Below the pieces are notes generated by a model, which saw only the letters and a program-made list of their open reading frames with translations, searched no databases and was not told the DNA's origin. Made by a program: the position numbers and the translations under genes. From NCBI RefSeq assembly GCF_007655305.1, contig NZ_VLOG01000026.1, forward strand, positions 62,001-126,000: 64,000 bases of DNA. Reading direction: 5' to 3'. This DNA is from Algoriphagus algorifonticola (lineage in GTDB: Bacteria; Bacteroidota; Bacteroidia; Cytophagales; Cyclobacteriaceae). Of the stretch, positions 27,151 to 30,652 are shown piece by piece (the first letter of the stretch is position 1; every line of letters starts with the position of its first letter).

Positions 27151-28290
27151 TTATCTTTTAAGCCTAACTCGAACCAAATAATAATCATCATCCAGTGAAA
27201 TTTTACCTGATTGCTCAAAAATATCACTCATAATAGTGCTTGCCTTCTCGCCGTCATAATTCTGAAAACTTTCAGGGTCAATCGGAAAAATTAATTCATC
27301 ATTTGAATTTAAGGATAGTGGGTTTCTAACAAATCTAAAAAACTCATTGTCTACTCGACGACTCAGTGTAAATAAATTTGACGGATCCTTGAGGCTCATT
27401 AGGATAAATTGAACTTTCGCATCAAAGGTCATATCCATAACCAACCAATTATCATTAATCAAAAAAGTACTTCCAGGAAATCTAACTCGATTTTGGGGAT
27501 CCAAACTGTAACTACCTGTGTATTTCTCAAAATTCTCTCGATCTGATCTTATATCTTGGGAAACAAAATCCAATTCAAATATGGGATCAAAATCCTTAGT
27601 AGTTGAATTAAATGTATATACTCTATCCCCAAACGGCTCACAATAATAACTTCCTTCATCTGATGCTAAAAAACCAGTATATGATACTATGGAATTTGAT
27701 CTTTTAGGGTCAAACGGAAAATATTTTGCCAACAAATTCCCTTCTAAATCGAAGCGATAGACATTAAAGTTGAAGTCGGTGGGATTATTAGAAACATACA
27801 CCAAGATCTCCCCATCAGAAATTGGTACTATCTTTTGAGCAAAAGCTTTAAGAGGATTCTTCGATATAAATTTTCCAGTATTAATTTCATAAGAATACAA
27901 AGAAAGATCACTTGGGGAAAAGAGATAAACCAATTCTCCGACTATAAAAAAATCATTTATCACCCCATATTCTCCTGGACCACTTCCCGTTTGGCCAAAA
28001 TATCGGATATACTTTCCATTTTTATCAAATAATGAAAGCCTGCTCGATACTTTGTCTAAAACAAAAATCCCAATTTCATTTTCAATCAATTTATTCAAGC
28101 TTAATAAAGGTGCTGGTGAATTTTTTAGAATCAATAAATCTTCAAATACAAGAAGGGAATCTGAGCTTACTAAAGGTGCTGGGATTTCCCCTAATATTTT
28201 GAATGGGACTTTCTCTTGTTTTAAACTATCTCCAACAGAACAAGCAGTAAACAGAAGAGCAAGAGATAGATAATTCCTAAATAATTTCAT
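27151..28290 (-). CDS. six-bladed beta-propeller lipoprotein
   Basis: A 379-residue lipoprotein with lipobox LLFTAC (C17). The body repeats propeller-type strands; the stretch FVLDKVSSRLSLFDKNGKY followed by YFGQTGSGPGEYG is typical of the Bacteroidota six-bladed beta-propeller family (NHL-like, PF17170 type). These proteins have no established function. They are often encoded next to small secreted peptides, and here the preceding gene (28407-28661) encodes a four-cysteine secreted peptide, with a terminator-like hairpin between. The region is more AT-rich than its neighbours. Binding of the peptide or of another ligand at the cell surface is an inference only. Confidence 0.8.
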   Translation of the reverse strand: MKLFRNYLSLALLFTACSVGDSLKQEKVPFKILGEIPAPLVSSDSLLVFEDLLILKNSPAPLLSLNKLIENEIGIFVLDKVSSRLSLFDKNGKYIRYFGQTGSGPGEYGVINDFFIVGELVYLFSPSDLSLYSYEINTGKFISKNPLKAFAQKIVPISDGEILVYVSNNPTDFNFNVYRFDLEGNLLAKYFPFDPKRSNSIVSYTGFLASDEGSYYCEPFGDRVYTFNSTTKDFDPIFELDFVSQDIRSDRENFEKYTGSYSLDPQNRVRFPGSTFLINDNWLVMDMTFDAKVQFILMSLKDPSNLFTLSRRVDNEFFRFVRNPLSLNSNDELIFPIDPESFQNYDGEKASTIMSDIFEQSGKISLDDDYYLVRVRLKR

Positions 28291-28373: not shown

Positions 28374-28400
28374 AAAAGAGATCCAGTTTCCTGGATCTCT
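28374..28400 (-). terminator. hairpin between peptide gene and beta-propeller gene
   Basis: Perfect 10-base stem AGAGATCCAG / CTGGATCTCT with a 4-base loop, followed on the minus strand by TTTATA. It begins 7 bases after the peptide gene stop. Partial termination here would give more peptide message than propeller message. Confidence 0.75.
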
Positions 28401-28406
28401 ATTTAA

Positions 28407-28661
28407 TTAATCACTCATTGAAGGGGTTTCGTATTCAACTCTAGTCCCATCGGGAGAAGGACAAGGGTTAGAAAGACACTCACTCCAACCAAAATCACAG
28501 CGATTACCGTTTGCAAGAACATTGTCATATCTATCCAAAGTCCTACACTCAACTTTTTTCCTAGCCCCAGTTGCATTAGAATGAATAGCGTTAAAAAAAA
28601 CGCCAAGGATAGCGAGAAACAAGATTTTAGCCACTTGGCTAAGGTTGATTTTGTTTGTCAC
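28407..28661 (-). CDS. small secreted four-cysteine peptide
   Basis: An 84-residue protein read from GTG at 28661; no in-frame ATG is available upstream. Residues 10-30 form a signal peptide (KILFLAILGVFFNAIHSNA). The mature part of about 54 residues has four cysteines (39, 55, 62, 67), enough for two disulfides, in a polar, charged context with CPSPDG near the end. No known family is recognised with certainty. The setting (peptide gene, hairpin, six-bladed propeller lipoprotein) resembles the NVEALA-type peptide/propeller pairs of other Bacteroidota, but the NVEALA motif itself is absent. An (AAAG)7 repeat lies 66 bases upstream of the start. Confidence 0.65.
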   Translation of the reverse strand: MTNKINLSQVAKILFLAILGVFFNAIHSNATGARKKVECRTLDRYDNVLANGNRCDFGWSECLSNPCPSPDGTRVEYETPSMSD

Positions 28662-28726: not shown

Positions 28727-28757
28727 AAAGAAAGAAAGAAAGAAAGAAAGAAAGAAA
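28727..28757. repeat. (AAAG)7 tetranucleotide repeat
   Basis: Seven uninterrupted AAAG units (28727-28754) plus three bases. It is about 66 bases upstream of the peptide gene start, in a region where its promoter should lie. Such repeats change length by slipped-strand mispairing and can tune promoter spacing. Confidence 0.95.
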
Positions 28758-28835: not shown

Positions 28836-28866
28836 AAAAAAACGCCGACTTTGCAGCCGGCGTTTT
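28836..28866 (-). terminator. rpsA terminator
   Basis: Stem AAAACGCCG / CGGCGTTTT (28839-28847 with 28858-28866) with a 10-base loop, followed on the minus strand by a T run. It is 23 bases after the rpsA stop. Confidence 0.88.
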
Positions 28867-28888
28867 CTGTTTTATAAGAGGTCAAGAA

Positions 28889-30652
28889 TTACTTCTTGCC
28901 GCCTTCCATTTTCTCTTTCAATTCTGCCAAAGCATCCAAATCACCTAGAGTAGATTTTTCAGCTGGAGTCTTGTCAGCAGCATCTTCCTTCTTCTTAGAA
29001 GAAGCAGCTTTCTTAGCTGGTTTAGCTTCTTCACGGAACATTGCTGTATGAGACATTACGATACGCTTGTCATCCTTAGAGAATTCAGTCACTTTGAAGT
29101 CCAGAGACTCACCAACCTCAACCTGAGATCCGTCTTCTTTCTCCAAGTTTTTAGAAGTAGCAAAGCCTTCCAAACCGTAAGGAAGCTCTAGCACAGCACC
29201 TTTGTCGTTTTTAGAAACAACAGTACACTTATGCACAGATCCTACAGGGAATACAGTTTCGAAAGTATCCCATGGATTCTCTTCCAACTGCTTGTGACCT
29301 AGCGCCAATCTTCTGTTTTCTACATCCAATTCCAATACAGCTACATCTAGCTCATCTCCTACTTTTACGAATTCAGACGGATGCTTGATTTTCTTAGTCC
29401 AAGAAAGGTCAGATACGTGAACCAAACCGTCGATTCCTTCTTCCATTTCCAAGAATAGACCGAAGTTAGTCAAGTTACGAACCACACCTTTGTGCTTAGT
29501 ACCTACTGCATACTTGGTAGACATATCTTCCTTAGTCCAAGGATCTTCAGTCAATTGCTTAATGCCTAGGGACATCTTTCTTTCGTCCTTGTCCAAAGTC
29601 AATACAACTGCTTCGATTTCGTCTCCAACTTTCACGAAATCAGCAGGGTTTCTCAAGTGCTGAGACCAGCTCATTTCAGATACGTGAATCAAACCTTCAA
29701 CTCCTGGAGCCAATTCCAAGAATGCACCGTAGTCAGCTACGTTTACAATCTTACCTTGTACTTTTGAACCAACTTCCAAGTTGCCTGCCAAAGAATCCCA
29801 AGGATGAGAAGTCAACTGCTTCATACCCAAAGAAATTCTCTTCTTGTCATCATCAAAGTCAAGCACAACGATCTGTACTTTCTGATCCAACTGTAATACT
29901 TCTTCCGGATGGTTGATACGTCCCCAAGAAATATCTGTAATGTGAAGTAGACCATCTACACCACCCAAGTCGATGAATACACCGAAGTTGGTCATGTTCT
30001 TGATCACACCTTCCAACACCTGACCTTTTTCCAGGTTGTTGAGGATTTCTGCTTTTTGCTTCTCGAGATCTTTCTCGATCAAGACTTTGTGAGAAACGAC
30101 TACGTTATCGTTAGCGTGGTTGATTTTCACCACTTTCACTTCCATTTTCTTACCTACATAGATATCGAAATCTCTGATAGGCTTCACATCGATCTGAGAA
30201 CCTGGCAAGAAGGCTTCTACACCGTAGATATCTACGATCAAACCACCTTTGGTTCTTCTCTTTACAAGACCTTCGATTACGCTATCATTTTCAAATGCGC
30301 TCTCGATATCCTGCCAAGCACGAACGATTTTTGCTTTTTTACGGGAAAGGATCAACTGACCCAAAGCATTCTCCTGCTCTTCGATGAATACTTCTACTTC
30401 GTCACCAGGCTTGATGGACTCCAAGTCACGGAATTCGTTCAATGGAACCAAACCGTCGGATTTGAAACCAATGTTGATGATCACGTCTTTGTCGTTCACA
30501 CCTACTACGGTTCCTTTGATCACTTCTTTCTCAGTGATCTCGTTCAATGTACCTTCGTACATTGCAGCCATTTCCTCACGCTGTGCTTTGGAATAGCCTT
30601 CTCCGAATCCTTTGGTTTCGAAGTTTTCCCAGTTAAAATCTTGTTTAGACAT
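28889..30652 (-). CDS. rpsA: 30S ribosomal protein S1
   Basis: S1 binds mRNA on the small subunit and helps start translation. The 587-residue protein has six S1/OB repeats (about residues 42-108, 126-192, 212-280, 297-367, 382-453, 468-535), with repeated wording such as VDGLLHITDISW, VEGLIHVSEMSW and IDGLVHVSDLSW. The C-terminal tail (about 545-587) is rich in Lys, Ala and Glu. The length is normal for the phylum. The leader is structured (30676-30704 and 30747-30762), and the gene is monocistronic between its own promoter and terminator. Confidence 0.97.
   Translation of the reverse strand: MSKQDFNWENFETKGFGEGYSKAQREEMAAMYEGTLNEITEKEVIKGTVVGVNDKDVIINIGFKSDGLVPLNEFRDLESIKPGDEVEVFIEEQENALGQLILSRKKAKIVRAWQDIESAFENDSVIEGLVKRRTKGGLIVDIYGVEAFLPGSQIDVKPIRDFDIYVGKKMEVKVVKINHANDNVVVSHKVLIEKDLEKQKAEILNNLEKGQVLEGVIKNMTNFGVFIDLGGVDGLLHITDISWGRINHPEEVLQLDQKVQIVVLDFDDDKKRISLGMKQLTSHPWDSLAGNLEVGSKVQGKIVNVADYGAFLELAPGVEGLIHVSEMSWSQHLRNPADFVKVGDEIEAVVLTLDKDERKMSLGIKQLTEDPWTKEDMSTKYAVGTKHKGVVRNLTNFGLFLEMEEGIDGLVHVSDLSWTKKIKHPSEFVKVGDELDVAVLELDVENRRLALGHKQLEENPWDTFETVFPVGSVHKCTVVSKNDKGAVLELPYGLEGFATSKNLEKEDGSQVEVGESLDFKVTEFSKDDKRIVMSHTAMFREEAKPAKKAASSKKKEDAADKTPAEKSTLGDLDALAELKEKMEGGKK

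What the first reader, a model, noticed from the sequence alone, without database searches (positions are those of the whole stretch)
28374..28661. Small secreted four-cysteine peptide paired with a six-bladed beta-propeller lipoprotein
An 84-residue secreted protein with four cysteines (39, 55, 62, 67) is encoded just before a propeller lipoprotein of the six-bladed family. Both lack an assigned function. Propeller/peptide pairs of this kind recur in Bacteroidota, but this peptide lacks the NVEALA motif and may be a new branch. A surface receptor-ligand or peptide-maturation pair is possible; that is inference.
Basis: partly seen in the sequence, partly recalled or inferred. Interest (0 to 1): 0.6.

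Follow-up and report, generated by a model that had tools for sequence, protein, structure and literature searches.

The report
Switchable secreted peptide and propeller pair
An Algoriphagus-type bacterium carries many two-gene cassettes, each encoding a small exported cysteine-rich peptide and a propeller-shaped lipoprotein, and short DNA repeats in front of many of the peptide genes suggest that cells may switch single cassettes on and off.

Summary
In detail: an 84-aa exported four-Cys peptide (28407-28661, minus) precedes a PF17170 propeller lipoprotein (27151-28290). The genus is Algoriphagus, inferred. Relatives with this Cys pattern were found at 11 other loci: 10 are followed by a propeller, one by a short remnant. 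NVEALA is absent (0 of 41 family genomes). The pair belongs to a class of portable cassettes: in 11 genomes 39 of 114 PF17170 propellers have an exported peptide with at least 4 Cys upstream, and peptide core and propeller stay together while flanking genes change. Cys numbers are mostly even (33 of 38 families).

A terminator-like hairpin with a T-run follows the peptide gene (36 of 55, controls 48 of 471). Short repeats lie upstream of 30 of 55 peptide genes (controls 10 of 387); the window has (AAAG)7.8. Alike promoters in one genome differ in tract length. I infer cassettes switched by repeat slippage, making peptide in excess over a cognate binding lipoprotein. Bacteriocin with immunity, signal with receptor, or variable surface structure remain open; peptide maturation is unlikely. 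Binding, switching and function were not tested.

The parts
28407..28661 (-). 84-aa exported peptide gene (GTG start), Cys 39/55/62/67
   Evidence: homologues; purifying selection
28569..28661 (-). predicted Sec signal peptide, residues 1-31
   Evidence: hydrophobic helix 7-30 in the AF2 model; cleavage site is my reading
28410..28568 (-). predicted mature peptide, residues 32-84
   Evidence: AF2 strands 37-42, 48-54, 74-77; C55, G58, C62, C67 invariant in 14 aligned relatives
28377..28400 (-). 10-bp hairpin with GAAA loop directly after the peptide stop, before the propeller gene; terminator-like, with a weak T-run on this strand
   Evidence: the pattern scan lists it on the + strand
27151..28290 (-). 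PF17170 six-bladed propeller lipoprotein, 379 aa, lipobox Cys17
   Evidence: E 8.8e-25; AF2 pTM 0.76; closest fold 4raa
28727..28757 (.). (AAAG)7.8 microsatellite about 65 nt upstream of the peptide start
   Evidence: highest-scoring tandem repeat in the window
28837..28868 (-). terminator-like hairpin after the upstream rpsA-type gene; would insulate the cassette

Best explanation
This is one member of a large class of portable two-gene cassettes: exported disulfide-type peptide, hairpin, propeller lipoprotein. Step 1 (shown by sequence): peptide and propeller are mostly co-inherited as a unit. Step 2 (inferred, strong): the peptide leaves by Sec, loses its signal peptide and forms two disulfides. 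Step 3 (inferred): the hairpin stops part of the transcription after the peptide gene, so that peptide is made in excess over propeller. Step 4 (inferred): a short repeat in the promoter region changes length by slippage and switches or tunes each cassette independently of the others. Step 5 (inferred): the propeller, anchored in the envelope by its lipid, binds its own peptide. Step 6 (inferred, weakest): the pair serves self/non-self dealings between cells. A bacteriocin-like peptide with a propeller that captures it as immunity is slightly my favourite over a peptide signal with its receptor.
For: Pairing: 39 of 114 PF17170 propellers have an exported >=4-Cys ORF upstream, against 13 of 727 other genes in the same stretches. 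Ten of the 17 control positives (at >=3 Cys) were given to Pfam: six match PF15869 or PF13970 over the cut-off, that is, propellers or a propeller-size family. In 842 kb of the own genome 12 of 14 such ORFs precede a 345-418 aa lipoprotein. Co-inheritance: Mantel r 0.79 for peptide core with propeller, 0 of 2000 permutations reach it. Of 32 cross-genome pairs of related propellers, 21 keep a related peptide, 3 the upstream gene and 4 the downstream gene. Disulfides: 33 of 38 peptide families have 4 or 6 Cys. Some GG-leader cassettes carry a C39 ABC exporter and a C39/VKOR/thioredoxin protein. Hairpin: 36 of 55 against 34 of 471; with a T-run 36 of 55 against 48 of 471, and 24 of 137 convergent gene ends. 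Repeats: 30 of 55 against 10 of 387, and 2 of 73 propellers without such a peptide. Alike paralogous promoters differ in tract length, e.g. (ATA)9/(ATA)8/(AAT)6, A13/A12, A13/A9.
Against: No direct evidence of binding, secretion, switching or killing. 75 of 114 propellers have no such peptide next to them; four genomes of the genus have a 30-33% identical relative of this propeller with none. In G135 a peptide of this very family is followed only by a 70-aa remnant. In G284 a 6-Cys exported peptide of another pattern precedes a 206-aa non-propeller ORF. 25 of 55 peptide genes have no repeat by my rule. Hairpins are uneven: below -9 in 8 of the 12 own-genome cassettes but in 0 of 5 in the G135 stretch. 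In the window the repeat fits the -33/-7 spacer model poorly (spacing 33, -7 score 3 of 6). The A. winogradskyi orthologue has a T13 tract at another position and only a weak structure after the peptide (-6.3). If immunity switched off together with toxin, sister cells would be killed, which speaks against the bacteriocin reading. Six transducer- or transport-like neighbour clusters that I looked at do not lie directly beside peptide-bearing propellers, which speaks against signalling.
Confidence: 0.5

Rival explanations
1. Peptide signal and receptor: the exported peptide is sensed by the envelope propeller, which passes the signal on; switching makes sub-populations of senders and listeners.
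For: Cognate pairing and co-inheritance; excess of peptide suggested by the hairpin; propellers without peptide could be listeners only. An ECF-sigma-like gene (by eye) lies three genes upstream of a cassette array at one conserved place in the own genome, G122 and G148, and four upstream in G135.
Against: That gene is separated from the cassettes by other genes and found at one place only. Histidine-kinase-like and TonB-receptor-like neighbours adjoin only propellers without peptide (names by eye, from the 40 largest neighbour clusters, not a full annotation).
Confidence: 0.25
2. Variable surface structure: the peptide stays bound to the lipoprotein and the pair is a phase-variable surface coat, useful against phages or grazers.
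For: Repeat-driven switching is typical of surface structures (recalled; abstracts in the listing); many diverse copies in one genome.
Against: A hairpin that favours peptide over propeller does not suit a 1:1 complex; no enrichment of the acidic surface-export signal (11 of 77 propellers against 17 of 86 other lipoproteins).
Confidence: 0.2
3. Peptide maturation: the propeller is an enzyme that processes the peptide, like the NHL-type lyase domain of PAM.
For: The propeller profile is related by sequence to the PAM lyase domain 3fvz (E 1.3e-8).
Against: No His in this propeller; in 38 propellers no alignment column has His in more than 21%, and the conserved columns look structural.
Confidence: 0.04
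4. Coincidence: the peptide is an unrelated small gene, and repeats and hairpins are ordinary features of AT-rich spacers.
For: AT-rich intergenic DNA; the repeat rule was widened during the work.
Against: Controls from the same stretches are far lower for pairing, hairpin and repeats; 7 of 12 intergenic repeats in 842 kb lie upstream of candidate peptide ORFs.
Confidence: 0.03

Closest known systems
NVEALA peptides (PF14055) with TolB_like / DUF5128 / DUF4221 lipoproteins
   Same: Small exported peptide with 3-5 Cys, immediately followed by a 347-393 aa lipoprotein of PF15869, PF17170 or PF13970: 6 of 6 in G731; hairpin after the peptide in 4 of 6.
   Different: No NVEALA profile match here; no upstream repeat in the 5 NVEALA genes checked.
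GG-leader Cys peptides with C39 ABC exporter and C39/VKOR/thioredoxin protein (TIGR04149-like leaders, below that model's cut-off)
   Same: Cys-rich exported peptide followed by a propeller-type lipoprotein (PF17170 or PF13970) in several loci, tandem units with conserved leader and variable core.
   Different: Export by leader cleavage instead of Sec; no such exporter or oxidase next to the window pair (by eye); no upstream repeat in the 8 checked.
BF0058 of Bacteroides fragilis (PDB 4raa), solved propeller titled 'putative exported protein'
   Same: Best fold match of the propeller (E 1.4e-15) and a match to the propeller profile.
   Different: 16% identity; whether it has a peptide partner was not checked.
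BtuG surface propeller lipoproteins (B12 capture)
   Same: Propeller lipoprotein that binds a ligand at the cell surface in Bacteroidetes (fold list; passages of PMC8941943).
   Different: Ligand is B12; the gene lies in transport loci; no peptide.
NadA-type repeat-controlled promoter of Neisseria
   Same: Short tandem repeat upstream of a gene changes the spacing of promoter elements (title and start of abstract of PMC2791445 in the listing).
   Different: Other phylum, other sigma factor; switching not tested here.

Membership tests
PF17170 (DUF5128, 6-bladed beta-propeller) | profile match above the curated cut-off | tested here: met
   P0002: 88 bits against 22.9, E 8.8e-25
PF17170 (DUF5128, 6-bladed beta-propeller) | propeller fold | tested here: met
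   AF2 pTM 0.76, mean pLDDT 72.6, weak e.g. in residues 197-212 and 257-274; best match 4raa
NVEALA (PF14055) | profile match / NVEALA motif | tested here: not met
   no match at E<=1; 0 of 41 family genomes
NVEALA (PF14055) | exported Cys peptide next to a propeller lipoprotein (found here, not part of the Pfam definition) | tested here: met
   NVEALA itself 6 of 6 in G731
Bacteriocin with immunity protein | peptide gene followed by a cognate partner gene | tested here: met
   exception G135
Bacteriocin with immunity protein | dedicated exporter beside the pair | tested here: not met
   none next to the window pair (by eye), which has a Sec-type signal; present only in some GG-leader loci
Bacteriocin with immunity protein | killing activity and protection by the partner | not testable with these tools
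   -
Repeat-controlled (phase-variable) promoter | short tandem repeat upstream of the gene | tested here: met
   (AAAG)7.8 at 28727-28757; class-wide 30 of 55 against 10 of 387
Repeat-controlled (phase-variable) promoter | repeat lies between -33 and -7 elements | tested here: inconclusive
   TTG within 16 nt before the repeat in 23 of 30 (background 36%), -7 score >=5 in 15 of 30 (background 25%); the window fits poorly
Repeat-controlled (phase-variable) promoter | tract length varies between otherwise alike promoters | tested here: met
   paralogous promoters in the own genome, G122, G135, G053 and G148; not testable for the window promoter, which has no alike copy
Repeat-controlled (phase-variable) promoter | expression switches with tract length | not testable with these tools
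   -

The most novel reading that the evidence does not exclude
Bacteria of the Algoriphagus type carry a switchable repertoire of secreted disulfide peptides, each with its own propeller receptor or immunity lipoprotein. Promoter repeats choose at random which cassettes each cell expresses, so that a clone presents many peptide identities: a recognition or antagonism system of a kind that none of my paper searches listed.
Probability: 0.33. Interest if true: 0.9.

Novelty: new variant of a known kind. Interest (0 to 1): 0.7.

Why it matters
PF17170 propellers are numerous here (17 matches over the cut-off in this 4.45 Mb genome, three of them identical copies) and I know of no assigned role for them (recalled; no paper listed). 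Tying them to exported cysteine peptides, with a common hairpin and upstream repeats, gives a testable role for two unknown kinds of protein at once. It also points to repeat-driven switching in a phylum better known for switching by DNA inversion (recalled).

Tried and rejected
NVEALA membership was tested and rejected. Peptide maturation by a PAM-like lyase was tested through conserved residues and found unlikely. Surface-export signal: no enrichment (11 of 77 against 17 of 86). Standard Bacteroidota promoter pattern TTTG-N16-24-TAnn(n)TTTG: 1 of 55 peptides, 15 of 727 controls, so no use. Peptide fold search: no match at E<=0.001; peptide profile against PDB sequences: only E 0.81-4.9. Paralogue of this peptide in the own genome: none found. 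PADLOC and PHROGs: none. Strain-level repeat variation could not be tested because one genome per species is held. A paired fold of peptide and propeller could not be run, because the tool takes single proteins.

Rows dropped: of 14 genomes matching P0001 at E<=0.1, only the own genome, G096, G057 and G053 gave an exported 4-Cys ORF; the other 11 match rows (L032-L042) were judged by eye to show none at the match and were not counted. Of 10 genomes with the A1 profile, G261 and G406 were judged spurious from the table and not examined further. Of 6 genomes with a PF14055 match at E<=0.01 only G731, the one over the cut-off, was examined. The 55-peptide set has 43 PF17170 partners and 12 others (lipoprotein-like genes of 300-520 aa, plus two partners named by hand, L117:914 and L064:6384); ORFs with four name prefixes were removed by hand as spurious. 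The homopolymer part of the repeat rule was added after a first scan (11 of 55 against 9 of 727) showed a T-run in an orthologue; the widened rule gave 30 of 55 against 12 of 727. Of the 10 repeat-bearing controls, three (L047, L066, L096) look to share a spacer with a divergent peptide gene and one (L117) is a peptide partner. Related peptides are not independent: 55 peptides fall in 38 families, of which 22 have a repeat and 27 a hairpin in at least one member. The propeller profile used was built from A2, which holds several own-genome propellers, so those match by construction; the scan missed the known C62 cassette, whose ORFs overlap.

I had also written that no transducer gene recurs near the cassettes; one search replaced that by what is stated above.

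Full report
OBSERVATION. The window carries, on the minus strand, an 84-aa ORF at 28407-28661 (GTG start) with Cys at 39, 55, 62 and 67, and then, about 117 bp on, a 379-aa lipoprotein gene at 27151-28290. The lipoprotein matches PF17170 at E 8.8e-25; the peptide matches nothing in Pfam or NCBIfam at E<=1. Upstream on the same strand lies an rpsA-type gene (28889-30652; my reading of its repeated domains), followed by a terminator-like hairpin at 28837-28868, so the pair looks like a transcription unit of its own. The peptide looks like a real gene: against the A. winogradskyi orthologue dN is 0.31 and dS 1.0 for the whole peptide, and 0.13 and 0.98 for the mature part.

RELATIVES. The window lies in G000, 4.45 Mb in 68 contigs. 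The three named relatives found by the propeller alignment are Algoriphagus; G148 and G122, of the window's genus, are A. winogradskyi and A. marinus, judged by equal contig lengths, so the genus is inferred to be Algoriphagus. Relatives of the peptide with the same Cys pattern (C55, G58, C62, C67 invariant in 14 aligned peptides) were found in G148, G135, G096, G122 (two in tandem), G057 and G053, in A. pacificus and, in another family of the order, in G258 (three in tandem), G205 (two loci) and G284. Without the window that is 11 loci. In 10 a propeller follows: PF17170 in G148, G096, G122, G057 and G053, in L152, L153, L159 and L154, and by similarity to the window propeller in A. pacificus. 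In the eleventh, G135, the peptide is followed by a lipoprotein ORF of only 70 aa, whose start resembles the window propeller by eye: a remnant. In G148 and G135 the peptide follows the same rpsA gene; next to the G096, G122 and G053 pairs the flanking genes differ. The family is patchy: 4 of 59 genus genomes, own included, and 10 of 390 order genomes, of which two look spurious.

CLASS. In the own genome 19 PF17170 matches exist, 17 over the cut-off, three of them identical copies. I fetched the surroundings of 15 of these 19 and of the 103 matches in ten other genomes (searched twelve; two had none). By a scripted rule 39 of 114 propellers have directly upstream an exported ORF with at least 4 Cys, against 13 of 727 other genes of the same stretches. 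At >=3 Cys there are 17 such control genes (listed); of ten given to Pfam, six match PF15869 or PF13970 over the cut-off. In 842 kb of the own genome 14 such ORFs were found: 12 precede a 345-418 aa lipoprotein on the same strand, of which 8 match a propeller profile built from A2 (partly from these very genes), 1 is PF13970 and 3 have no Pfam match; the other two look spurious. These contigs were chosen because they hold propellers, and the scan missed the C62 cassette, whose ORFs overlap. In 400 kb of G135, 5 of 6 candidates precede a 341-397 aa lipoprotein on the same strand, 3 of them matching the profile. NVEALA peptides have the same layout: 6 of 6 in G731, the only genome of 247 over the cut-off, are followed by PF15869, PF13970 or PF17170 lipoproteins. 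Some propellers instead follow GG-leader Cys peptides, in loci that can hold a C39 ABC exporter (PF03412, E 4.7e-35) and a C39/VKOR/thioredoxin protein (PF03412 4.3e-12, PF07884 2.1e-6). The common theme is a small exported Cys peptide next to a propeller lipoprotein, whatever the export route. A counter-example: in G284 a second exported peptide, with 6 Cys, precedes a 206-aa ORF that is no propeller-size gene.

CO-INHERITANCE. Over 53 pairs the similarity of peptide cores follows that of propellers (Mantel r 0.79, 0 of 2000 permutations), while that of signal peptides follows it only weakly (r 0.13, also 0 of 2000). Of 32 cross-genome pairs of related propellers, 21 keep a related peptide but only 3 the upstream and 4 the downstream gene; where both flanks differ, 16 of 27 keep the peptide, against 3 of 382 for unrelated propellers. 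Shared descent of the pair explains part of this; the point is that the two genes travel together. Against strict pairing, 75 of 114 propellers have no such peptide, and four genomes of the genus have a relative of the window propeller (30-33% identity, near folD and a tRNA-like sequence by eye) without one.

CYSTEINES AND STRUCTURE. The 55 peptides form 38 families; 33 have 4 or 6 Cys as the commonest number, 5 an odd number (binomial p 2e-6 against equal odds of odd and even). AF2 puts a helix at 7-30 and strands at 37-42, 48-54 and 74-77 (mean pLDDT 71.7, pTM 0.42, 5 sequences), with no fold match at E<=0.001. The propeller model has pTM 0.76 from 4 sequences; its best match is 4raa, BF0058 of B. 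fragilis, then NHL domains, with BtuG proteins lower. Conserved positions in 38 propellers look structural; no catalytic set and no conserved His were found.

NEIGHBOURS. Of the 40 largest neighbour clusters (read by eye) I looked at six that could transduce or transport. None lies directly beside a peptide-bearing propeller. An ECF-sigma-like gene lies three genes upstream of a cassette array in the own genome, G122 and G148 and four upstream in G135, at what seems one conserved place. Histidine-kinase-like and TonB-receptor-like genes adjoin propellers without peptide.

HAIRPIN. Right after the window peptide's stop codon is a 10-bp hairpin with a GAAA loop (28377-28400). Across the class a structure of less than -9 kcal/mol within 45 nt of the peptide stop occurs in 36 of 55, against 34 of 471 same-strand control gene pairs. 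With a T-run the count is 36 of 55 against 48 of 471, and 24 of 137 convergent gene ends. The hairpin sequences differ. It is uneven between genomes: 8 of the 12 own-genome cassettes but 0 of 5 in the G135 stretch. In a 60-nt window without control it is below -9 in 4 of 6 NVEALA, 8 of 10 GG-leader and 3 of 4 other-family cases. I infer partial termination, hence more peptide than propeller; the propeller may also have its own promoter.

REPEATS. The window's strongest tandem repeat is (AAAG)7.8 at 28727-28757, about 65 nt before the peptide start. Within 250 nt upstream of the start, a short repeat or homopolymer lies before 30 of 55 peptide genes: poly-G 8, poly-A 6, poly-T 5, TTCT or TTTC 5, AAT or ATA 6. 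Controls: 12 of 727 genes, 10 of 387 with at least 120 nt of free upstream DNA, and 2 of 73 propellers without such a peptide. A first, narrower rule gave 11 of 55 against 9 of 727. In 842 kb of the own genome there are 23 such repeats, 12 intergenic, 7 of these upstream of candidate peptide ORFs; in 400 kb of G135 the figures are 11, 5 and 2, with a third at a peptide whose start was probably called too early. Two other-family relatives have heptamers, (ATAATTC)9 and (CATAATT)7; 5 NVEALA and 8 GG-leader genes checked have none. Paralogous promoters within one genome are alike apart from tract length: (ATA)9, (ATA)8 and twice (AAT)6 in the own genome, and A15 and A9 there; A13 and A12; A13 and A9 twice; T12 and T9; G11 and G8 (local alignment scores 66-139 of 150, three of them 132 or more). 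This is what slippage would leave behind. The repeat often follows a TTG (23 of 30 within 16 nt; background 36%) and precedes a TAnnTTTG-like box (15 of 30; background 25%), the elements of the Bacteroidetes primary sigma factor (passages of PMC7366714), with spacings of 17-26 nt in 15 of the 23 promoters where both could be placed. So a spacer-length switch is plausible for many promoters; the window itself fits poorly (33 nt, 3 of 6).

MECHANISM. My commitment: a peptide exported by Sec, oxidised to two disulfides, made in excess over its cognate envelope propeller, with repeat-driven switching of the cassette. Whether the pair acts as bacteriocin and immunity, as signal and receptor, or as a variable surface structure is open. 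I lean slightly to the first because of the pairing, diversity, tandem arrays, partner-only genes and the exporter-bearing relatives, but co-switching of toxin and immunity is a real difficulty for it.

LITERATURE. Searches of the held library for NVEALA, 6-bladed beta-propeller with peptide, VKOR/C39/double glycine, bacteroidetocin, the Pfam names, GG-Bacteroidetes or TIGR04149 (76), propeller with small protein, bacteriocin operons and repeat phase variation in Bacteroidetes or Flavobacterium listed no paper that appears, from title and abstract start, to describe such cassettes. Long lists were cut to the first 10-20 rows. I saw listings only, plus passages of PMC10434189, PMC8941943 and PMC7366714. 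Most subscription papers are not in that library, so this is not proof of absence.

Noticed in passing
L145:3053-8515, L050:1601-11963, L082:2644-11499, L142, L143, L128: Loci with GG-leader Cys peptides, several in tandem with one shared leader (MKKLSLEMLRL...ITGG) and variable cores, most followed by a propeller-size lipoprotein; some with a C39/VKOR/thioredoxin protein and a C39 ABC exporter.
   Followed up: partly
L144:4819-4843 (own genome C60) and G135 C10:5416-5440 (L220): A five-fold pentamer repeat precedes a roughly 476-490 aa lipoprotein gene in two species: possibly another repeat-controlled surface protein.
   Followed up: no
L188:1516-5735 (own genome C54): A second tandem array of three exported 6-8 Cys peptides, each followed by a 360-375 aa lipoprotein without any Pfam match; no strong hairpin between. 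One partner gene has a masked stretch.
   Followed up: partly
L175, L176, L178, L179: Relatives of the window propeller without a peptide, after folD and a tRNA-like sequence (by eye), in four genomes of the genus.
   Followed up: partly
L044:1763-1975 (G135): After a peptide of the window's family, a 70-aa lipoprotein ORF that looks like a remnant of the propeller gene.
   Followed up: partly
upstream of L066, L097, L104, L105, L110, L120 peptide genes: A shared motif AACTA-N1-6-(C/T)TTG(C/T), often just before the repeat, in 11 of 55 peptide genes against 4 of 387 controls: possibly an extended -33 element or a regulator site.
   Followed up: partly
L172:5579-9132: Beside the A. pacificus pair, on the other strand, genes that look by eye like part of a peptide-modification cluster (one LanC-like).
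   Followed up: no
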